A stretch of DNA of 64,000 nt from an uncultured Phycisphaerae bacterium. Its GTDB lineage: Bacteria > Planctomycetota > Phycisphaerae > UBA1845 > Fen-1342. Made by a program: the position numbers and the translations under genes. The stretch covers positions 62,001 to 126,000 of the forward strand of contig CALGJV010000011.1 in assembly GCA_937928595.1 (NCBI GenBank), written 5' to 3'. A model generated the notes under the pieces. That model made no database searches. It saw nothing but the letters and a program-made list of their open reading frames with translations, and was not told the DNA's origin. Shown in pieces: positions 1,960 to 32,135 of the stretch; the first letter of the stretch is position 1; every line of letters starts with the position of its first letter.

Positions 1960-3261
1960 ATGCACCGAAAGTCGGCGGAACGCCTGGTGCGAAGAACCGT
2001 CCTGCTCTGCGCTGCCCTCGTGGCGGCGCGGCTTACGCCCGCGCAGGGCCCCGTGCCGGTGACGGTCGCCCCCGCGGTCACACGCGACGTGCCGCCCGCG
2101 CTGCGCCTCGTCGGAACGGTGAACGCCTACCGGCGGTCCGTTGTGGCCGCGGAAGTGGCTGGGATTGTCGCGACCTGGGAAGCGGAGGAGGGGCAGTTTC
2201 TGAAGGCGGGGGACGTGATCTGCCGGCTCGACCACACCGTCGCCCGGTTGCGGGTGGATGAGGCCCGCGCGACGCTCCGCAGCCACGAGGCGGAGCTGGC
2301 CAAGCTCGAGGCCGGCGAGCGGCGGGAAGAGCTCGACCGGATGGAAGCGCTGGTCGCCGAATCGGAAGCGATGCTCCAGAAGTGGGAGGTCGAGCGCAAG
2401 CGGATCGAAGACCTGCACGCCCGCGGGCAGAGCAGTGACAAGGAGCGGCACGATACCGAAATGGACTACCTCGCCGCACGGGGTCGGCTGCTCCAGGCCC
2501 GGGCACAACTCGAGCTGGCCCGCAACGGCGCGCGAGCCGAGGACATCCTGAAGGCGCGTGAGTTGGTGGCCGCGCAGCAGGCCGTCCTGCGGCGGCTCGA
2601 GCGCGACCTCGACAAGACGGTCATCCGGGCCCCGTTCAATGGGGCGCTGACCGTCCGGCGTACCGAAATCGGGCAGTGGATCGAAGCCGGCGGCCCCGTG
2701 GCGGAGCTGGTCGCCCTGGACACGGTCAAGATTCGGACGGACGTGCCCGAAGCGGCCATTCCGTTCGCGGTGACGGGGGCGGCCGCCGCGGTCGAAGTTG
2801 AGGCGCTGGCGCGCAGCTGGTCGGCGCGGATCACGCGCGTGATCCCCCAGGCGAACCCCGCGGCGCGGACGTTCCCGATCGAGATCGACCTGGACAACGC
2901 GGACCACCAGCTCTTGCCGGGGATGTTCGTCTGGACGCAAGTGCCCAGCGGCCCGGCGGGCGCGCGGCTGATGGTGCCGAAGGACGCGTTGGTGGCGCGC
3001 GGGACGGAAAAGACGATCTACGTGGTTCGCGCGGGGCCCGAGGGACCGCCCCTGGCCGTACCGCTGCCGGTGACGACGGGGCTGGAGGTCGGCGGCGCGA
3101 TCGAGGTGCAGGCGCCGGGCCTGAGTCCGGGCGACCTCGTCGTCGTGCGGGCCAACGAGCGGCTGCGGGGCCCGACGCCGGTGATCCCGACGCCGGGGCG
3201 CGACGCGCCGGCCGCGGCGACGACCCAGTCGGCCGGCACGACCGCCGCGTCGCCGTCGTGA
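1960..3261 (+). CDS. RND efflux periplasmic adaptor (membrane fusion protein)
   Basis: Periplasmic adaptor of a tripartite RND exporter, 433 residues. The chosen ATG gives a short basic N-terminus and a hydrophobic stretch (RRTVLLCAALVAARL) ending at PAQG, which reads as a signal peptide; an in-frame ATG at 1936 is the alternative. A split biotinyl-lipoyl domain flanks a long alpha-helical hairpin rich in Glu, Arg and Leu (about residues 95-190), and the returning half is marked by DKTVIRAPFNG. Beta-barrel and membrane-proximal domains follow. It lies 50 bp upstream of the RND permease, so the two are probably one operon. No outer-membrane TolC-like gene is adjacent. The substrate cannot be told from the sequence. 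Confidence 0.9.
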   Translation: MHRKSAERLVRRTVLLCAALVAARLTPAQGPVPVTVAPAVTRDVPPALRLVGTVNAYRRSVVAAEVAGIVATWEAEEGQFLKAGDVICRLDHTVARLRVDEARATLRSHEAELAKLEAGERREELDRMEALVAESEAMLQKWEVERKRIEDLHARGQSSDKERHDTEMDYLAARGRLLQARAQLELARNGARAEDILKARELVAAQQAVLRRLERDLDKTVIRAPFNGALTVRRTEIGQWIEAGGPVAELVALDTVKIRTDVPEAAIPFAVTGAAAAVEVEALARSWSARITRVIPQANPAARTFPIEIDLDNADHQLLPGMFVWTQVPSGPAGARLMVPKDALVARGTEKTIYVVRAGPEGPPLAVPLPVTTGLEVGGAIEVQAPGLSPGDLVVVRANERLRGPTPVIPTPGRDAPAAATTQSAGTTAASPS

Positions 3262-3311: not shown

Positions 3312-6300
3312 GTGATCCTGATCCGCGAGTGCATTTCCCGGCCGGTCGCCGTGTCGGTCGGCGTGCTGCTGGTCGTGCTGTTCGGGCTGTTGTCACTGTT
3401 TCACATCCCGGTACAGCTCACGCCGAACGTCGACATCCCGATCGTCACGGTGACCACGCGCTGGACCGGTGCGAGCCCCCAGGAGGTTGAGCGCGAGATC
3501 GTCGATCGGCAGGAGGAGCAGCTGCGCAGCACAAAGGGCCTGCGCGAGATGCGCAGCACGTCCCGGGACGGCCTCGGCGAGATCACGCTCGAGTTCTACA
3601 ACGACACCAACCGCGACGTCGCCCTGCGGGACGTCAACGACAAGCTGCGGCAGGTCACGAATTATCCGCTCGACGTCGACGAGCCAACGGTCGCCGCGGC
3701 CGACACCGCCCGTGACTCGGAGATTGCCTGGCTGATCCTGTACCCGACGGCGGACAATGACGAGGGGGTGACGCGCCTCTACGACTTCGCGCGCGACTAC
3801 ATCAAACCCTATCTCGACCGGGTGGAGGGCGTCGGCTCGACCGACATCTACGGCGGGCGCGAGCGCGAGGTCCACGTCGTGGTGGACGCCGGGCGTCTGG
3901 CAGCGCGCGGCCTCACGTTCGCGCAGCTCGAGTTCGCGCTGCGGCGCGAGAACGCCAACGTCTCGGCCGGCACGGTGGCCCAGGGCAAGCGCGATTACAC
4001 GGTCCGGACGCTCGGGCAGTACGAGACGGTCGAGCAGATCCTGGGCACGGTCGTGGCCTACACGCCGGGCGGACCGGTCTACGTGCGGGACGTCGCCGAC
4101 GTGGAGGAGAGCTTCACGAAGCAGTACGCGTTCGTACGCAGCAAGGGCCGGTACGTTCTGGCGTTTCCGGTGCGGCGCGAGGTCGGCGCGAACGTCATCA
4201 CCGTCATGGCCAAGCTCCGCGAAGCCGTGCGGCGCATCAATGAGGATGTGCTGCGCGCCCGCGGACTGAACCTCGAGCTCAAGCAGGTCTACGACGAGAC
4301 GGTCTACATCGACCAGGCCATCGCGATGGTGCGCAACAACATCTTCGTCGGCGGGACGCTGGCCGGCGTGGTGCTGCTGCTGTTTCTGCGGAACTGGCGC
4401 GCCACGGCCATCCTGGCTCTGGCGATTCCCATCTCGGTGGTCGGCACCTTCCTGGTCGTGGCTTCCACCGGCCGCACGATGAACGTCGTCTCGCTGGCCG
4501 GCATGGCGTTCGCGGTCGGCATGGTCGTCGACAACGCGATCGTCGTGCTCGAGAACATCTACCGGCACTACCAGATGGGCAAGACGCCGCGACTCGCGGC
4601 GTACGACGGAGCCCGCGAGGTCTGGGCGGCGGTGCTCGCCAGCACGCTCACGACCATGGCCGTGTTCATCCCGGTCATCTTCGTGCGCGAGGAGGCGGGC
4701 CAGCTTTTCCAGGACATCAGCGTGGCCATCGTGGCTGCCGTGGGGCTCTCGCTGGTGGTGTCCATCACCGTCGTGCCCACGATGGCGACCGGCTTCCTGC
4801 ACCTGGGGGTGGGCCGGCGCGCGCGCGCGCGCCCGGCCGCCGCGGCGGCGACGCCGGCCGAAACCCGCCTGGGACGGGCCGTCGGCGCGGTGGTGCATTG
4901 GGCCAACGACCGGCCGGTGCACCGCGGCTTCGCCGTGGCCGCGCTGGTGGGGCTGTCGGTCGGGCTGGTTCCGCTGCTCGTTCCGGAAACGACCTACCTG
5001 CCGCAGGGCAACCGTAACCTCGTGTTCGGCTTCCTGATTACGCCGCCGGGCTACACGATCGACGAGTTCAAGCGGATGGGGGACGTCGTGGAAGCCCGCC
5101 TGCGGCCGTACTGGGAGGTCGCGGCGGGGTCGCCGGAGCACGCCGCGCTCGACGCCCGGTGGCGCGCGGAGATTGACGAGCTAATCCGGGCCGGCCGGGT
5201 GCCGGAGCTGGCCGCTCCGCCCGCGCCGGGCTTCAGCCTCGAGCGCCGGCTCCAGCGCGACCGCCTGGAGCGCGAATGGCGGACGCCGCCGCCGCTCATC
5301 GAGAACTTCTTCTTCGTGGCGTACGGCGGCGGGTGCTTCATGGGTTGCACGAGTCGCGATCCGGCCCGGGTGAAGCCGATGGCCCGCCTGCTCCAGACGG
5401 CGGGGGCCCAGATCCCCGGCGTGTATCCGGTGTTTTTCCAGACGGCGATTTTCCGGGTCGGCGCGGGCAACAACGCGGAGTTGCAGATCCGCGGGGACGA
5501 TCTGGACCATGTCGTCGGCGCGGCCAGCGCCCTGTTCGCCGCGTGTCTGCGGCAGTTCGGCCCGCCGCAGGCCACGCCGACCAACTTCAACCTCGGTCGC
5601 CCGGAAGTGCAGGTCATCGCGGACCGCGAACGGGCCGCCGACCTGGGCCTCACGGTGCGGGACGTCGGCTTCATCGTCGAGGCCGCGGTGGAGGGCGCGT
5701 ACGTCGGCGAGTACCGTTTCGCGGGCGGCACGACGTGCGACATCCGGCTGAAGATCAAGGGACAGGAAGGGCGACCGACGCAGGAAATCGGACAAATTCC
5801 CATCCACACGCCCGCCGGCCGGGTCGTGCCGCTGTCCGCCGCCGTGACGCTCCGCAACACGACCGCGCTGGAGCAGATCTATCGTGTCGAACGCCAGCGG
5901 GCCGTGGCGCTGACCATCAACCCGCCCGAGACCACCACGCTCGAGGCGGCGGTCGCTGCGCTCCGGAACATGGTCGCGGAGCTCCGTGAAGCCCAGGCGA
6001 TTCCGCCGGATGTGACCGTCACGCTGGCCGGCAACGCCGACAAGCTGGTGAAGGCCCGCGAGACGATGGTCGGCGAGTGGCGCGGCTGGACGCTTGCCAC
6101 GCTTGTCAACGTCGTCAGCAGCCGCTTCTTCCTCTCGCTTCTGGTCACGTACCTGCTCGTGGCCGCGCTGTATGAGAGCTGGGTCTACCCCTTCGTGATC
6201 ATGTTCAGCGTGCCGCTCGCGGTCCTCGGCGGGTTCCTGGGGCTGACGCTGGCGCACTGGGGCACGCTGCTGACCACCGACCAACCCATCCAGCAGCTCG

Positions 6301-7506: not shown

Positions 7507-7565
7507 TGGCGATGGAGTCCGCCTTAAAGCGGTCCTGGGCAACCGGGCCTGATGACTCCTACCAG
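7507..7565 (+). promoter_or_regulatory. Fluoride riboswitch (crcB RNA) aptamer
   Basis: The strand carries the diagnostic GGCGATGGAG (7508-7517) and CTGATGACTCCTAC boxes (7549-7562). GGCG (7508-7511) pairs with CGCC (7520-7523). GGAGTC (7514-7519) pairs perfectly with GACTCC (7554-7559) as the pseudoknot. GGTCC (7531-7535) pairs with GGGCC (7545-7549), capped by GG-GCAA-CC, a GNRA tetraloop. The unpaired TTAAA linker is at 7524-7528. This is the known fold, and the operon downstream includes CrcB, the standard target. Fluoride binding is expected to switch expression on. Confidence 0.95.
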
Positions 7566-7581
7566 GAACCGCCTTGGTAGG
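7558..7581 (+). promoter_or_regulatory. Riboswitch-competing hairpin (expression platform)
   Basis: CCTACCAGG (7558-7566) can pair with CTTGGTAGG (7573-7581), nine pairs including one G-U, with loop AACCGC. Its 5' arm contains the last CC of the aptamer pseudoknot and the conserved TACC, so this hairpin and the folded aptamer cannot fully coexist. Confidence 0.7.
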
Positions 7582-7617
7582 GCTCGCAGGTCGCGGTCGG
7601 CGCGCAGGTGAGCATGC

Positions 7618-7650
7618 AGCCCCATCAGGTAGTCCCTGGTCGGGCTTTTT
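7618..7650 (+). terminator. Intrinsic terminator under riboswitch control
   Basis: AGCCC (7618-7622) pairs with GGGCT (7642-7646) around an inner CAGG/CCTG stem (7626-7629, 7635-7638), followed by TTTTT (7646-7650). It lies between the aptamer and the first start codon at 7706. This fits transcriptional (termination/antitermination) control. The outer stem is short, so confidence is moderate. Confidence 0.6.
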
Positions 7651-9353: not shown

Positions 9354-9767
9354 ATGTGGCGGACGTACGTACTGGACTGCCTGTTGAACAAGTACACGCT
9401 GATCGTCGCGGGCGGCGGTCTGGGCTCGGTGCTGCGCTACCTGGTGCAGGGCTGGGGCCAGTCGCTGACCAAGGGGACGTTTCCGCTCGGGACGATGATC
9501 GTGAACGTGGTCGGCTGCTTCGCAATGGGCGTGCTCAACATGGTCTTCGCGGAGCGCATCCCGATCCGGATGGAGTACCGCGTCGGGCTCACGGTCGGCA
9601 TTCTCGGCGGGTTCACGACGTTCTCGACGTTCGGCTGGGAGTCGTTCGCGCTGGCCAACGAGGGCCAGGGCGTCCGGGCGATGATGAACATGCTGCTGAC
9701 GGTCACGCTGGGGTTCGCGGCGGTGTGGCTGGGGTTCCGTCTGGCGCAACGCTGGTATGGGGCGTAG
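9354..9767 (+). CDS. crcB: Fluoride ion channel CrcB/Fluc
   Basis: Four-helix dual-topology membrane channel that exports fluoride from the cytoplasm. The 137-residue length is typical. Family motifs are all present: GGGLGSVLRY, FPLGTMIVNVVGC and GGFTTFSTFGWE, the last containing the pore Phe/Thr/Ser residues. The start is the ATG at 9354 preceded by GCAGGG. It is the third gene after the fluoride riboswitch, which fixes its function firmly. The only unusual point is about 20 extra N-terminal residues before the first helix. Confidence 0.97.
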   Translation: MWRTYVLDCLLNKYTLIVAGGGLGSVLRYLVQGWGQSLTKGTFPLGTMIVNVVGCFAMGVLNMVFAERIPIRMEYRVGLTVGILGGFTTFSTFGWESFALANEGQGVRAMMNMLLTVTLGFAAVWLGFRLAQRWYGA

Positions 9768-27927: not shown

Positions 27928-28041
27928 GCACTTTATGGGCGCGGCGCTCTGCGCGCGGCTGCGGCCGCCCGCGATATGCTTCCAGATGGCGGGCCCGACA
28001 GCGCTGGAATGGTACCCGTGACGACCTTTCGCGAGATTTCC

Positions 28042-30405
28042 ATGCGACTGCGCGCGTTACTTTGCGGCGGCCTCGTGCTGGGGCTCGGCCTGGCCGCGTA
28101 TGCGTCCGGCCCCGACAACGACGTCGAGTGGAACGGTCTGAGCCACGTGGACTGGGCGGACCGGACGCCGCTCTGCCCGATCGCGGGCGAGAGCTTCACG
28201 GTGGCGGTGCAATGCTACCGCTACGATCTCACCGGCGTGCGCGTGTACCTGACCGTGGGCGGCGCGCCGCAGTGGCTGGAAGGCGTCTGGGTCGCCAACC
28301 GCGGTCCGTACGACGTGTGGCAGGCGACGATCCCGGCTACGTCGCCGACGGCGCAGCTCAGCTACTACTTCGAGGTCACGGACGGCACGGATATCGATTA
28401 CCTCGGGCCGGACGGCCCGTCGGACGGCCCGCCCGCCGCGGGCTGGTCGCTGAACTTCGCGACGCTGAGCCACGCGCCGCTCGGCGCGACGCTGACCAGC
28501 GACGGCGGGGCCGTGTTCAAGGTCTGGGCCCCCGGCGCGACGACCGCCGGCGTCGCGGGCCAGTTCAACGGCTGGAGCACCACGTCGCTGCCCATGAGCC
28601 CGAGCGGCGGGTTCTTCACGCGCAAGGTCGCGCCGCCGGTGAGCGCGAACCAGAAATACAAGTTCGTGTTCAACGGCAACAACTGGCGAACCGACGCCCG
28701 CGCCCGCGCGATGGACCCGGGCGACAACGGCAACAGCATTCTCGTGAACCCGCGGGCCTACGCTTGGGGCGACGGGGCTTTCCAGATGCCGGCGTTCGAG
28801 GAGCTCGTGATTTATGAGCTGCACGTCGGCACGTTCTCCGGGCGCAACGACGGGCTGAACCGCGCCGGCCGGTTCCGCGACATCGTGGACCGGCACTTGG
28901 ACCACCTGCTCTACCTCGGCGTGAACGCCGTGCAGCTCATGCCGGTGACCGAGTTCGATTATCACGAGTCGTGGGGCTACAACCCGATCCTGCAATTCGG
29001 CCCCGAGAACGCCTACGGCAGTCCGGCCGACCTGCGGTACACGATCGACCGACTGCACCAGCACGGGATCGCGGTCCTGCTCGACGTCGTCTTCAACCAC
29101 TTCTCGCCCACCGGCAACTTCCTGTGGAACTACGACGGGACGCAGATCTACTTCGACACGCCGGCGGTCGGTACGCCGTGGGGCTCGCAGGCCGACTTCG
29201 ACCGCGGGGAGGTCGCCGACTACTTCGTCGATGCGACGCTGCTGTGGCTGGAGGAGTACCGCGTCGACGGTTTCCGCATGGACGCCACGCGCTACATGCG
29301 CGACAACGACATCTTCCCCGGCGGGCAGCCGTCCGGCTGGGCGCTGATGCAGCGGATCAACAACGCAATCGACCGCCGCAAGGGGCAGGCGATCTCCATC
29401 GCCGAGGAGCTGCCGAACGAGCCGATGATCACGACGCCCACCGCCTGGGGCGGCGCCGGCTTCGACAGCCAGTGGCACGACCAATGGAACGACGACGTGC
29501 GCCAGGAGGTCTTCGACGCCGCCTACGGTGACCCGGAGATGTGGAAGATCGCCAACGCGATCCACGCGCCGGGCTACCCGAACAAGACGCACCTGGTCCG
29601 CTACGTCGAGGGCCACGACGAGGCCGCCTACGGCCGGCTGGCCGTCGCGATCGACAGCAGCAACCCGTACAGCAAGTGGGCGCAGGGTCGCTCCAAGCTG
29701 GCCCAGGGGCTCACGATCCTCGCGCCGGGAATCCCGATGTTCCTCCAGGGCGGCGAGTGGCTCGAGGACACCCCGTTCGGCAGCGCGGCAGGCAACCGCA
29801 TCGACTGGTCCAAGGCCGTCGCGCGGGCCCCGATCGTGCAGTTCTTCCGCGACGTGATCCACGTCCGCCGCACCAACTGCGGCTTCCGCTCCAACGCAGG
29901 CTGCGAGGTCCATCACGTCGACGACTTCAACAACATCCTCGCGTTTCATCGCTGGTGCGACTCGGGCAACGACCTGGTCGTCGTGGCCAGCCTGCGAAAC
30001 AGCGACATCGGCAACTACCGCGTCGGCTTCCCGCAGGGCGGCGTCTGGTACGAGATCCTCAACAGCCAGGCCCTCGACTACCTCGGCAACGGCTCGGGCA
30101 ACGCCGGGCAGGTGACGGCCGTGGTCGTGCCGTACGACGGGATGCCGTACTCGGCCGCGCTGACGGTGCCGGAGATGGGGCTGCTGGTGTTCCGGCACAA
30201 CGAGCCGCCGCCCCGGCCGGGCGACCTGAACTGCGACGGCGCGGTGAACTTCGATGATATCGACCCGTTCGTGCTGGCCCTGAGCGGGCCGGAGGGCTAC
30301 GGCGCGGCGTACCCGCAGTGCCGCTGGCTCAACGCCGACTGCAACGGCGACGGCGTTGTGAGTTTCGACGACATCGACGCGTTCGTGGCGCTGATCGGAA
30401 GTTGA
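28042..30405 (+). CDS. Secreted GH13 alpha-glucan-active enzyme (branching-enzyme-like) with dockerin-like tail
   Basis: 787 residues from ATG 28042; in-frame ATGs at 28009 and 27976 are alternatives. A signal peptide ends near AAYASG. An N-terminal beta domain (about 25-140) is followed by a CBM48-like module (AVFKVWAPGATTAG, VAGQFNGWS), then the GH13 barrel starting at VIYELHVGTFSG. The four GH13 regions are intact: DVVFNHF, GFRMDATRY (nucleophile D414), ISIAEELP (acid/base E455) and VEGHDEAA (D526). The order resembles GlgB/TreZ-type enzymes, but export and the C-terminal GDLNCDG...NFDDID pair point to extracellular use on starch or glycogen. Branching versus hydrolysis cannot be decided from sequence. 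Confidence 0.88.
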   Translation: MRLRALLCGGLVLGLGLAAYASGPDNDVEWNGLSHVDWADRTPLCPIAGESFTVAVQCYRYDLTGVRVYLTVGGAPQWLEGVWVANRGPYDVWQATIPATSPTAQLSYYFEVTDGTDIDYLGPDGPSDGPPAAGWSLNFATLSHAPLGATLTSDGGAVFKVWAPGATTAGVAGQFNGWSTTSLPMSPSGGFFTRKVAPPVSANQKYKFVFNGNNWRTDARARAMDPGDNGNSILVNPRAYAWGDGAFQMPAFEELVIYELHVGTFSGRNDGLNRAGRFRDIVDRHLDHLLYLGVNAVQLMPVTEFDYHESWGYNPILQFGPENAYGSPADLRYTIDRLHQHGIAVLLDVVFNHFSPTGNFLWNYDGTQIYFDTPAVGTPWGSQADFDRGEVADYFVDATLLWLEEYRVDGFRMDATRYMRDNDIFPGGQPSGWALMQRINNAIDRRKGQAISIAEELPNEPMITTPTAWGGAGFDSQWHDQWNDDVRQEVFDAAYGDPEMWKIANAIHAPGYPNKTHLVRYVEGHDEAAYGRLAVAIDSSNPYSKWAQGRSKLAQGLTILAPGIPMFLQGGEWLEDTPFGSAAGNRIDWSKAVARAPIVQFFRDVIHVRRTNCGFRSNAGCEVHHVDDFNNILAFHRWCDSGNDLVVVASLRNSDIGNYRVGFPQGGVWYEILNSQALDYLGNGSGNAGQVTAVVVPYDGMPYSAALTVPEMGLLVFRHNEPPPRPGDLNCDGAVNFDDIDPFVLALSGPEGYGAAYPQCRWLNADCNGDGVVSFDDIDAFVALIGS

Positions 30406-30454
30406 GGAAGAAGGCACGAAGCCAAGACGCGACGGACGGAGGGACTGGGCACGA

Positions 30455-30486
30455 AGGGATTGAGGGACTGAGGGATGGAGGGATTG
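30455..30486 (+). repeat. Octamer tandem repeat AGGGAYTG
   Basis: Four head-to-tail octamers: AGGGATTG, AGGGACTG, AGGGATGG, AGGGATTG. Looser copies flank it on both sides (for example GGAGGGACTGGG near 30440). It lies in the 369-bp intergenic stretch 30406-30774, which has no recognisable gene. Confidence 0.8.
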
Positions 30487-30681
30487 AGGGGGTGGCCCCG
30501 CCCGACCGCGCCCGCCGAGTCCTACGCAACAATCGGCGATGTTCGCGCGCCTGTGGCGGCCGACCCCCGCGTCGGCCGTTTCTTTGGACCTGTGGCAACC
30601 AGGTTGCGTGTCGGCAGATCATCCGCACACGAAGCGCCGGCGAGCGCTCATGCCGCCCCGACCGCGCCGCGCTCTCTGTGA

Positions 30682-30744
30682 CTTGCTATTCGCCACTCGC
30701 CATTCGCTACTCGCAACTCGTTATTCGCCACTCGCAACTCGTCA
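30682..30744 (+). repeat. Heptamer tandem repeat YTCGCNA, nine units
   Basis: Nine contiguous 7-bp units: CTTGCTA, TTCGCCA, CTCGCCA, TTCGCTA, CTCGCAA, CTCGTTA, TTCGCCA, CTCGCAA, CTCGTCA. Variation is confined mainly to units 1, 5 and 6 of each heptamer. It lies just beyond the 3' end of the nitroreductase gene. Confidence 0.9.
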
Positions 30745-30774
30745 CGCGCTCCTCGCACCCCCCGTGTCCGCCGC

Positions 30775-31272
30775 CTACCCGCTGAACCTCTCCCAGTGCA
30801 ACACTTCCTGGAGCGCCCGCTTCGGCGGTGACGGCGTCTCCGCCGCCTGCCCGATCGCGATCAGCGACACGAGCTTGTACGCCTCCGGCGCCCCCAGCAG
30901 CTTCACCACCGCCGGCGCGTACGCCTTCTTGTCGCCCGCGATCCAGCACGAGGCCAGCCCCAGCGCCGTCGCCGCCAGCAGCATCTGCGTCGTCGCGGCC
31001 GAGCCGTCCTCCAGGTAGTACACGCAGTCGCGGCACAGCACGGCGATGCATGCATCCGCGTCCGTCAGGAACCTGCCGTGCTCGGTCAGGTGCGCGAGCT
31101 GCCGCAGCTTGGTCGACTCGGTTACGACGACGAACTCCCACGGCTGCTCATTCCGCGCCGTGGGGGCCAGCCGGCCCATGTTGACGATCTGGGAGAGCTG
31201 CTCGCGGGTCGTGTGGCCGGGGCGGTACTTCCGCACGCTGCGGCGCTTGGACATCACCTCGAACGCGTCCAT
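30775..31272 (-). CDS. Nitroreductase-family flavoprotein
   Basis: 165 residues, FMN-dependent NAD(P)H oxidoreductase fold. It begins with MSKRRSVRKYRPGHTTREQL and has GRLAPTARNEQPWEFVVV, the usual phosphate- and flavin-contact region, then LLAATALGLASCWIAG and VSLIAIGQA. The length matches the small single-domain subfamily that often replaces classical NfsB in anaerobes. Substrate unknown. A TAAAAT -10-like box (31319-31324, minus) is 46 nt upstream. Confidence 0.85.
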   Translation of the reverse strand: MDAFEVMSKRRSVRKYRPGHTTREQLSQIVNMGRLAPTARNEQPWEFVVVTESTKLRQLAHLTEHGRFLTDADACIAVLCRDCVYYLEDGSAATTQMLLAATALGLASCWIAGDKKAYAPAVVKLLGAPEAYKLVSLIAIGQAAETPSPPKRALQEVLHWERFSG

Positions 31273-31318
31273 GTCAGTCCTCGTCGGTGAGATGAGCGGC
31301 CCGACGGCCGGCGCTCGG

Positions 31319-31352
31319 ATTTTACCACGTCAACGGATCCGGTGGCTAGAAT
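31319..31352. promoter_or_regulatory. Divergent -10 boxes for the nitroreductase and SOUL genes
   Basis: TAAAAT reads on the minus strand (31319-31324) and TAGAAT on the plus strand (31347-31352), placed to drive the two divergent genes. The -35 hexamers are poor. Confidence 0.45.
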
Positions 31353-31421
31353 CGTTCAAAACGTTCAGGGCGTCGCCGGCCGAGACGCGCTCGGCCCGCA
31401 ACGCCAGACTGGGAGGTCCGT

Positions 31422-32135
31422 ATGCGTCTTGTTTCGCTGGTTTCCGGGTTTTTGGCGACGGTGATGGGGGTCGGCGCCTGCGCCACGTCGTCGAATCGGC
31501 CGCCGGGTGCCGCGCGGGTCGCGGACTCGGCTTCGGGCGCTACGGTTGAGGCCGCGGACGAAGCGGAGACCCAGCCGCCGCCGCTCATGGTCTCCGAGGC
31601 GGACCTGCCGCGCGGCTTCCCGAAGGCGGGCCCGATTGGCACGGTCGTAATCAAGGAGTACCCGGCGTATCGACTGGCCCGCGTGACGAGCGACCGCGGC
31701 GGCGCGAATGCGCTGTTCAATCCGCTTTTCCGGCACATTCAGCGGAACGACATCCCGATGACCGCGCCGGTCGAGATGACGTATGCGACGCCGGACGCCG
31801 GCGCCCGCCGGAGCGGCACGACTTCGATGGCGTTCCTGTACCAGGCGCCGGATGTGGGACGGACTGGCCCGGACGCGGCCGATCCGCGGGTCGTGGTGGA
31901 GGACGTGCCGCCGATGACGGTGCTGTCGGTGGCGCTCCGCGGCGACTACACCCCCGCGAACTTCGACCGCGGCCTCGCGCAGCTCGAAACGTGGCTCTCG
32001 GAGAACCCGGGCCGGGTCCGCGTGGTCGGAGCACCGCGCTACCTCGCGTACAACAGTCCGTTCGTGCCGTGGTTCCTCAAGGTGGGCGAGGTGCAGTACC
32101 CGGTCGAACGGCTCGACCGCGTGGCCCGGCCGTGA
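31422..32135 (+). CDS. SOUL heme-binding-family lipoprotein
   Basis: 237 residues. The signal sequence ends in a lipobox (MGVGAC), followed by an Ala/Thr-rich linker. The SOUL domain starts around IGTVVIKEYPAYRLARVTS and includes ALFNPLFRHIQRNDIPMTAPVEM, the most conserved segment of the family, and ends with FLKVGEVQYPV. SOUL proteins bind heme or other tetrapyrroles; the bacterial role is not established. Lipid anchoring puts it in the envelope. It is convergent with the esterase gene. Confidence 0.85.
   Translation: MRLVSLVSGFLATVMGVGACATSSNRPPGAARVADSASGATVEAADEAETQPPPLMVSEADLPRGFPKAGPIGTVVIKEYPAYRLARVTSDRGGANALFNPLFRHIQRNDIPMTAPVEMTYATPDAGARRSGTTSMAFLYQAPDVGRTGPDAADPRVVVEDVPPMTVLSVALRGDYTPANFDRGLAQLETWLSENPGRVRVVGAPRYLAYNSPFVPWFLKVGEVQYPVERLDRVARP

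What the first reader, a model, noticed from the sequence alone, without database searches (positions are those of the whole stretch)
30682..30744. Nine-unit heptamer tandem repeat, YTCGCNA
Perfect 7-bp phasing over 63 bp with substitutions almost confined to fixed columns, placed just after the nitroreductase stop. Seven-base periodic repeats are unusual outside cyanobacterial STRR-type elements. Its A/T content contrasts with the surroundings.
Basis: seen in the sequence. Interest (0 to 1): 0.5.

Follow-up and report, generated by a model that had tools for sequence, protein, structure and literature searches.

The report
Dispersed seven-base intergenic repeat arrays
A short run of imperfect seven-base repeats behind a nitroreductase gene is one of many look-alike runs that sit in the gaps between genes of this planctomycete and some of its relatives, a variant of a repeat class known from Xanthomonas and Nostoc but without the G-runs once offered to explain that class.

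Summary
The array is real: nine 7-bp units at 30682-30744 (decayed to 30758), above chance. It is not a one-off: the same genome has 13 exact three-unit matches (reversed control 0), and 39 of 101 relatives, own genome included, have matches (control 0). It resembles the dispersed intergenic heptamers of Xanthomonas (GGGAATC) in unit skeleton (GCGARTN against GGGANTN), in close inverted pairs (seen in relatives, not in the own genome) and in placement. It lacks their G-tract: a GGG form matches in 5 of 101 relatives, about as often as its control.

New here:
- Polarity: the end where the purine-rich strand starts is nearer a coding boundary than the other end in 74 of 84 scorable arrays; the 24 of 118 arrays in close inverted pairs face outward, none inward.
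- Behind groEL, three of four congeners keep heptamers at the same place with differing units; two differ by exactly two units.
- Before dnaJ, the spacer between inverted arrays is reversed in one species (one locus).

Most likely: DNA-level repeat turnover tolerated at intergenic edges, no shown function. Punctuation, protein binding or mobility remain open. New variant of a known kind.

The parts
30682..30744 (+). Heptamer array, nine units fitting YTYGYNA (YTCGCNA strand is plus; purine-rich TNGCGAR strand is minus, sense of the nitroreductase gene)
30745..30758 (+). Two decayed units at the outer end of the array
30775..31272 (-). Nitroreductase gene whose stop lies next to the array's outer end
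27976..30405 (+). Convergent alpha-amylase-type gene on the other side of the intergenic region
30434..30490 (+). Octamer array GGGAYTGA (best part 30456-30490), near the amylase stop, purine-rich on the plus strand
30551..30578 (+). REP-like palindrome (CTGTGG + CGGCCGAC...GTCGGCCG) between the two arrays
   Evidence: read from sequence, coordinates; comparison with REPs only by eye
30590..30607 (+). Second REP-like palindrome (CTGTGGCAACCAGGTTGC)
   Evidence: read from sequence, coordinates
30631..30647 (+). Stretch GAAGCGCCGGCGAGCGC, also found beside the heptamer array at G000:C19

Best explanation
The array is one copy of a dispersed, non-coding, degenerate heptamer repeat family (purine-rich unit GCGARTN) that sits at the edges of intergenic regions. 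Shown: several copies in this genome and many in some relatives; genome-specific favourite units; fixed polarity toward coding boundaries; a whole-unit copy-number difference and a reversed spacer, each at one locus of one relative genus. Inferred: arrays are seeded from existing arrays by recombination or template switching, grow and shrink by slippage, and survive where they do not harm coding sequence. On this view the array is a DNA-level, mostly neutral or selfish repeat and not a device of the nitroreductase gene.
For: Copies in own genome and 39 of 101 relatives with no control match. Uneven counts, e.g. 77 in G084 against 1, 2 and 1 in congeners G037, G068, G085. Neighbouring units more alike than in shuffled order in G015 and G084 (0 of 1000 permutations each). 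Exactly 14 bp (two units) between G037 and G085 behind groEL. Reversed spacer between inverted arrays before dnaJ in G068. Units of different arrays about as alike as units of one array in G015 and G000 (1.20 against 1.28; 2.01 against 2.09). Arrays meet both stops (58) and starts (26) with the same DNA polarity, which speaks against one RNA-level role.
Against: No neighbour similarity in the own genome (P 0.67), so slippage is not shown for the window's own arrays. The likeness between arrays is biased because arrays were found with one consensus, and in G084 units within an array are somewhat more alike than between arrays (0.93 against 1.10). Neutral turnover does not by itself explain the polarity. 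Seeding in trans was not observed directly; no filled/empty site pair was found.
Confidence: 0.55

Rival explanations
1. Transcription punctuation: arrays, above all inverted pairs that can form hairpins, act as terminators, insulators or 3' mRNA stabilisers at gene ends.
For: 58 of 84 scorable arrays have a called gene end at their outer side, in G015 mostly within 20 bp; inverted pairs are complementary. In Xanthomonas, transcripts started or stopped more often at quadruplex-capable repeats than at control repeats (PMC4692102, read).
Against: 26 of 84 lie at a called gene start with the same DNA polarity. In the window no terminator-like or promoter-like site was found in 30380-30800 and the minus-strand RNA of the gap folds no better than shuffles (z +1.84, 99 of 100 shuffles as good or better). 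The own genome has no close pair among 16 arrays.
Confidence: 0.17
2. Protein-binding site clusters (nucleoid or regulatory protein) that keep the fixed columns by selection.
For: Variation in the window array is confined to four of seven columns; period 21, two helical turns, scores best.
Against: Units differ between genomes and even at the same place in one genus; 62 of 101 relatives have no match; neighbouring genes are unrelated (groEL, dnaJ, nitroreductase, type IV pilin-like and others by eye).
Confidence: 0.12
3. Carriage by or descent from mobile elements (REP/RAYT or MITE-like): arrays are ends or passengers of elements moved by a Y1 transposase.
For: Array count correlates with Y1_Tnp (PF01797) count across 101 genomes (rho 0.31, p 0.0017) and in family f1 (27 genomes, rho 0.54, p 0.004, not corrected for kinship or genome size). 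REP-like palindromes share the gaps. Some arrays ride in longer dispersed repeats (G431). Masked inner flanks match other loci in 7 of 14 (G000), 10 of 48 (G015) and 15 of 27 (G084) arrays.
Against: Own genome has 1 Y1_Tnp match, G020 has 2 with 61 array matches, G046 has 12 with none. Spacers of inverted pairs looked unrelated to each other by eye. Outer flanks match no other locus in G000 (0 of 14) and G015 (0 of 48), though 11 of 27 do in G084. No control family was correlated.
Confidence: 0.1
4. Templated end-extension at DNA breaks: a polymerase adds heptamers to 3' ends from a genome-specific template (see novel case).
For: Polarity from coding boundaries inward, outward-facing pairs around unique cores, genome-specific units.
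Against: Units vary within arrays, unlike a single template; no enzyme or template RNA identified; none was searched for.
Confidence: 0.05
5. G-quadruplex / i-motif elements as proposed for the Xanthomonas and Nostoc heptamers.
For: Same unit skeleton and placement as the Xanthomonas repeats (PMC4692102).
Against: The unit has GCG, not GGG. Any GGG or CCC occurs in 2 of 16 (G000), 4 of 56 (G015) and 3 of 27 (G084) arrays. The GGG form matches in 5 of 101 relatives, in none of the 27 of family f1, and its reversed control matches in 5 genomes too.
Confidence: 0.01

Closest known systems
Xanthomonas GGGAATC / GGGANTN heptamer repeats (Rehm et al. 2015, PMC4692102)
   Same: Heptamer with the same skeleton (GCGARTN against GGGANTN), dispersed, mostly intergenic, close opposed pairs in the same orientation, purine-rich strand sense near stops and antisense upstream of ORFs.
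   Different: No G-tract, so no quadruplex expected; different phylum; own genome has no close pair; only some relatives carry the form.
Nostoc / Calothrix heptamers (GGGGAYT; STRR)
   Same: Intergenic degenerate heptamer arrays. The G-rich strand has the same placement by purine richness (PMC4692102).
   Different: G-tracts; few inverted pairs in Nostoc (PMC4692102). In Nostoc the A-Y-T step is on the G-rich strand, so the polarity agrees by purine richness, not by the ART motif. STRR unit sequences are recalled, not looked up.
Beggiatoaceae TAACTGA repeats (MacGregor 2015, PMC4679880)
   Same: Intergenic heptamer arrays next to coding boundaries; in ART/AYT terms the orientation before starts agrees with the polarity found here.
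   Different: Nearly one invariant unit, mostly directly before start codons, one inverted repeat only; not purine-rich in the sense used here.
GTAG/CGTC-tagged REPs (PMC3733652, passages read)
   Same: Intergenic, often in opposed pairs, mostly downstream of genes, reported in Planctomycetes; similar palindromes share the gaps here.
   Different: Single palindromes of 20-40 bp, not tandem heptamers.

Membership tests
Dispersed bacterial heptamer repeats (Xanthomonas GGGANTN type) | Tandem 7-bp unit with fixed and variable columns, many copies per genome | tested here: met
Dispersed bacterial heptamer repeats (Xanthomonas GGGANTN type) | Mostly intergenic, close to coding boundaries with strand polarity | tested here: met
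   outer end nearer in 74 of 84; 28 of 118 arrays fell in called ORFs (simple gene finder, partly miscalled) and were left out
Dispersed bacterial heptamer repeats (Xanthomonas GGGANTN type) | Close inverted pairs in one orientation | tested here: met
   in relatives 24 arrays outward, 0 inward; in the own genome 0 of 16 arrays are paired, so not met there
Dispersed bacterial heptamer repeats (Xanthomonas GGGANTN type) | G-tract in the unit able to form a quadruplex | tested here: not met
   hence filed as a variant, not a member of the G4 repeats
Cyanobacterial STRR | Known STRR unit sequences in a cyanobacterium | not tested
   STRR units not looked up; host is planctomycete, so membership is not claimed
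REP / MITE mobile palindromes | Conserved palindromic core moved as a unit | tested here: inconclusive
   Spacers of inverted pairs unrelated by eye in G015 and G019-G021; shared masked inner flanks in part; longer dispersed repeats in G431
Intrinsic terminator | GC-rich hairpin followed by a T-run at the array | tested here: not met
   (window 30380-30800): 0 sites; fold no better than shuffles

The most novel reading that the evidence does not exclude
The arrays are scars of templated end-extension: when DNA breaks in an intergenic region, a polymerase adds heptamers to the 3' ends, copying a genome-specific template (an RNA, or an existing array paired through the GART core), much as telomerase can heal breaks with telomeric repeats. 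This would account for the polarity from both coding boundaries inward, the outward-facing pairs around a unique core, and the genome-specific flavour that differs at conserved places between congeners.
Probability: 0.05. Interest if true: 0.88.

Novelty: new variant of a known kind. Interest (0 to 1): 0.42.

Why it matters
The best described members of this class were linked to G-quadruplexes. A lineage with the same skeleton, pairing and placement but no G-tract is a natural control: quadruplex formation is not needed to produce or keep such arrays. The polarity toward coding boundaries, the changed units at a conserved place and the reversed spacer turn a descriptive curiosity into testable questions about how short repeats spread and turn over between bacterial genes.

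Tried and rejected
Tandem stop codons in three frames: TAGCGAG supplies them and several G015 arrays begin in a stop codon, but the G084 and G019 flavour TGGCGAA and the Xanthomonas GGGAATC contain none, so this is no general function. C-rich Rho site in a 3' UTR: rejected because at stops the purine-rich strand is the sense strand. One ARTNNNN code behind all heptamers: not claimed; the six-unit pattern matches 67 of 101 relatives but the reversed control also matches often (G006: 148+148 against 28+65), and Chloroflexus GATAGRA does not fit. Genome-wide replacement of the GCC by the GTC flavour in genus g34: not supported, YTYGTCM triplets are rare there (G037 2, G085 2, G068 1, G084 0), so changed units are shown only near groEL and dnaJ. 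Rfam: only two hits below the families' gathering scores in 30000-32000.

Limits: the gene finder is my own simple codon-usage script. In the very GC-rich own genome it chose an antisense ORF over the amylase gene, so stop/start labels are approximate and the own-genome row is weak. Of 118 arrays, 28 inside called ORFs and 6 without two flanking genes were left out of the 84. Arrays were detected with one consensus. The 20 loci L091-L110 were picked partly because one search showed close pairs; two of them (L105, L106) are from family f2. For G015 the places listed were covered; for G084 the list was cut and I fetched 20 stretches, not all places. The 'unselected' stretches come from genomes picked because one search showed many repeats.

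Full report
OBSERVATION. Nine 7-bp units fill 30682-30744 and two decayed units follow to 30758. Variation sits in columns 1, 3, 5 and 6 and is absent from columns 2, 4 and 7. The best period-7 score of the window (17.5) exceeds the best of 100 resampled windows (15.0). The nitroreductase on the minus strand ends 16 bases from the decayed end; on the other side of the gap lies a convergent alpha-amylase-type gene. The nearest named relative of the nitroreductase is in a Phycisphaerales MAG (78% identity), so the host is most likely a planctomycete of that group.

NOT ALONE. In the same genome (3.69 Mb, 46 contigs) the three-unit pattern has 13 matches and the reversed pattern none; the looser two-unit pattern has 46 against 2. 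Of 101 relatives, own genome included, 39 have matches (17 of 27 in the same family) and none has a control match; counts reach 82, 79, 77 and 61 in G015, G043, G084 and G020, while 62 have none. A wider draw from the phylum gives 21 of 392, with control matches in 8 genomes. A de novo scan found 13 arrays of period 7, 6 of period 8, 2 of period 9, 4 of period 12 and 5 of period 15 in 327 kb (the window plus stretches of seven repeat-rich relatives), with none at these periods in shuffled sequence; periods 12 and 15 are likely coding. Eighty loci chosen only by the nitroreductase gave 1 of period 7, 2 of period 8, 2 of period 9 and 3 of period 12 in 586 kb. So period 7 stands out in repeat-rich planctomycetes and not in general.

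ANATOMY. On the purine-rich strand the unit is GCGARTN. Genomes differ in favourites: CTCGCTA in G015 (143 of 268 units), TTCGCCA in G084 (79 of 185), mixed in the own genome (top unit 17 of 98). In relatives arrays often come as inverted pairs around a short spacer. Over four sets of loci, 24 of 118 arrays have an opposed partner within 150 bp on their inner side and none on the outer side; the own genome has no such pair among 16 arrays. The outer end, where the purine-rich strand starts, is nearer a coding boundary than the inner end in 10 of 12 (own genome), 35 of 38 (G015), 18 of 21 (G084) and 11 of 13 (other relatives) scorable arrays, 74 of 84 in all. In G015 the outer end is within 20 bp in 34 of 38 and the inner end in 3 of 38. 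The boundary is a called stop in 58 and a called start in 26. The window array fits. At the amylase end of the same gap an octamer array (GGGAYTGA) also reads inward with its purine-rich strand; the octamer has 11 matches at 8 places in the genome, control 0, and at three of them, the window's included, a heptamer array follows 163-199 bp away in the same relative orientation. The other five octamer loci showed no heptamer array.

EVOLUTION IN ONE GENUS. Around groEL and dnaJ of genus g34, G084, G037 and G085 have heptamers right behind the groEL stop, TGGCGAA units in G084 and mixed units with TGACGAA in the other two; G068 has different DNA there and no array. G037 and G085 differ by exactly 14 bp. 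Before dnaJ, G037, G085 and G068 have short inverted heptamer runs, and the segment between is reversed in G068: alignment to its reverse complement scores 47.0 (G085) and 49.5 (G037); the shuffled maxima are 22.5 and 24; G037 against the reverse complement of G085, which measures the palindromic arms alone, scores 31.0 against a shuffled maximum of 22. G084 has arrays of its own in that gap but the DNA does not align (17.5, shuffled maximum 26). This is one inversion at one locus.

MECHANISM. Neighbouring units are more alike than in shuffled order in G015 and G084 (0 of 1000 permutations each) but not in the own genome (P 0.67). With the 14-bp difference this supports slippage in relatives. 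Units of different arrays are about as alike as units of one array in G015 and G000; in G084 slightly less. This suggests a shared pool but is biased, since arrays were found with one consensus. Arrays inside longer dispersed repeats (G431) and composite heptamer-octamer runs at four places of one G006 contig show that copying as a unit happens. I favour DNA-level turnover without a dedicated function (0.55). The polarity is not explained by that alone and is the strongest open point. Because stops and starts are met with the same DNA polarity, one RNA-level role is less likely. The number of Y1 transposase genes correlates with array number (rho 0.31; 0.54 in the family), which keeps a mobile-element role open.

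COMPARISON. Rehm et al. 2015 (PMC4692102; text parts 1, 2, 3 and 5 of 8 read) describe GGGAATC repeats in two Xanthomonas genomes: 186 and 183 sites, 70 and 75 cases of close opposed pairs, mostly intergenic, preferably on the sense strand near stops or the antisense strand upstream of ORFs, with quadruplexes formed in vitro. These features match except the G-tract. They also report a preference for four units and tie it to quadruplexes; in G015 four units is the commonest length too (26 of 56 rows, three units 9 of 56, detection floor near three units) without G-tracts. MacGregor 2015 (PMC4679880; parts 1 and 2 of 9 and passages read) describes TAACTGA repeats next to start codons. Subirana and Messeguer 2019 (PMC6749651; part 1 of 5, section 6 and passages read) mention heptamer-derived satellites and GATAGRA in Chloroflexus. 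PMC3733652 and PMC4060949 were seen as passages only. I saw no paper on heptamer repeats in Phycisphaerae or other planctomycetes among the results listed by searches of the held library; some lists were cut (15 of 990 listed; 10 of 72), so this is weak. The survey of Mrazek 2007 is known to me here only as cited by the two 2015 papers.

VERDICT. A real, recurrent repeat; a variant of a known heptamer class without G-tracts; a sharp polarity and informative evolution in relatives; no function shown.

Noticed in passing
window 30434-30490: Octamer array GGGAYTGA behind the amylase stop; 11 matches at 8 places in the own genome, control 0; at 3 of the 8 a heptamer array lies 163-199 bp away in the same relative orientation.
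   Followed up: partly
window 30551-30607: Two REP-like palindromes with a CTGTGG head between octamer and heptamer; similar GTAG/GTGG-headed palindromes lie in array-bearing gaps of G015 and G084 (likeness judged by eye).
   Followed up: partly
L231 (G006), 1284-1403, 3797-3886, 7547-7623, 9642-9725: Heptamers (ACTAGAR)n run straight into octamers (ACCTTRTC)n at four places of one contig, a composite repeat.
   Followed up: no
L283, L284, L285 (G267): Heptamer arrays lie beside repeats that look like CRISPR repeats (GTTTCAATCCCAACTTGGTTC) at three places (not tested with a CRISPR tool).
   Followed up: no
L286, L288, L289 (G431): A heptamer array sits inside a longer dispersed repeat; L286 and L288 are 98% identical over 259 bp, L289 matches in pieces.
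   Followed up: no
101 relatives: Y1 transposase (PF01797) matches in 97 of 101 genomes; their number correlates weakly with heptamer array number.
   Followed up: partly
L226 (G015), about 3007-3027: An array seems to reach into the 5' end of a gene whose start reads LGLYLHIPFC by eye, like HemN/HemW (recalled motif), as if it had replaced the original start region.
   Followed up: no
L279 against L278 and L280: The segment between inverted heptamer runs upstream of dnaJ is reversed in one of three congeners.
   Followed up: yes
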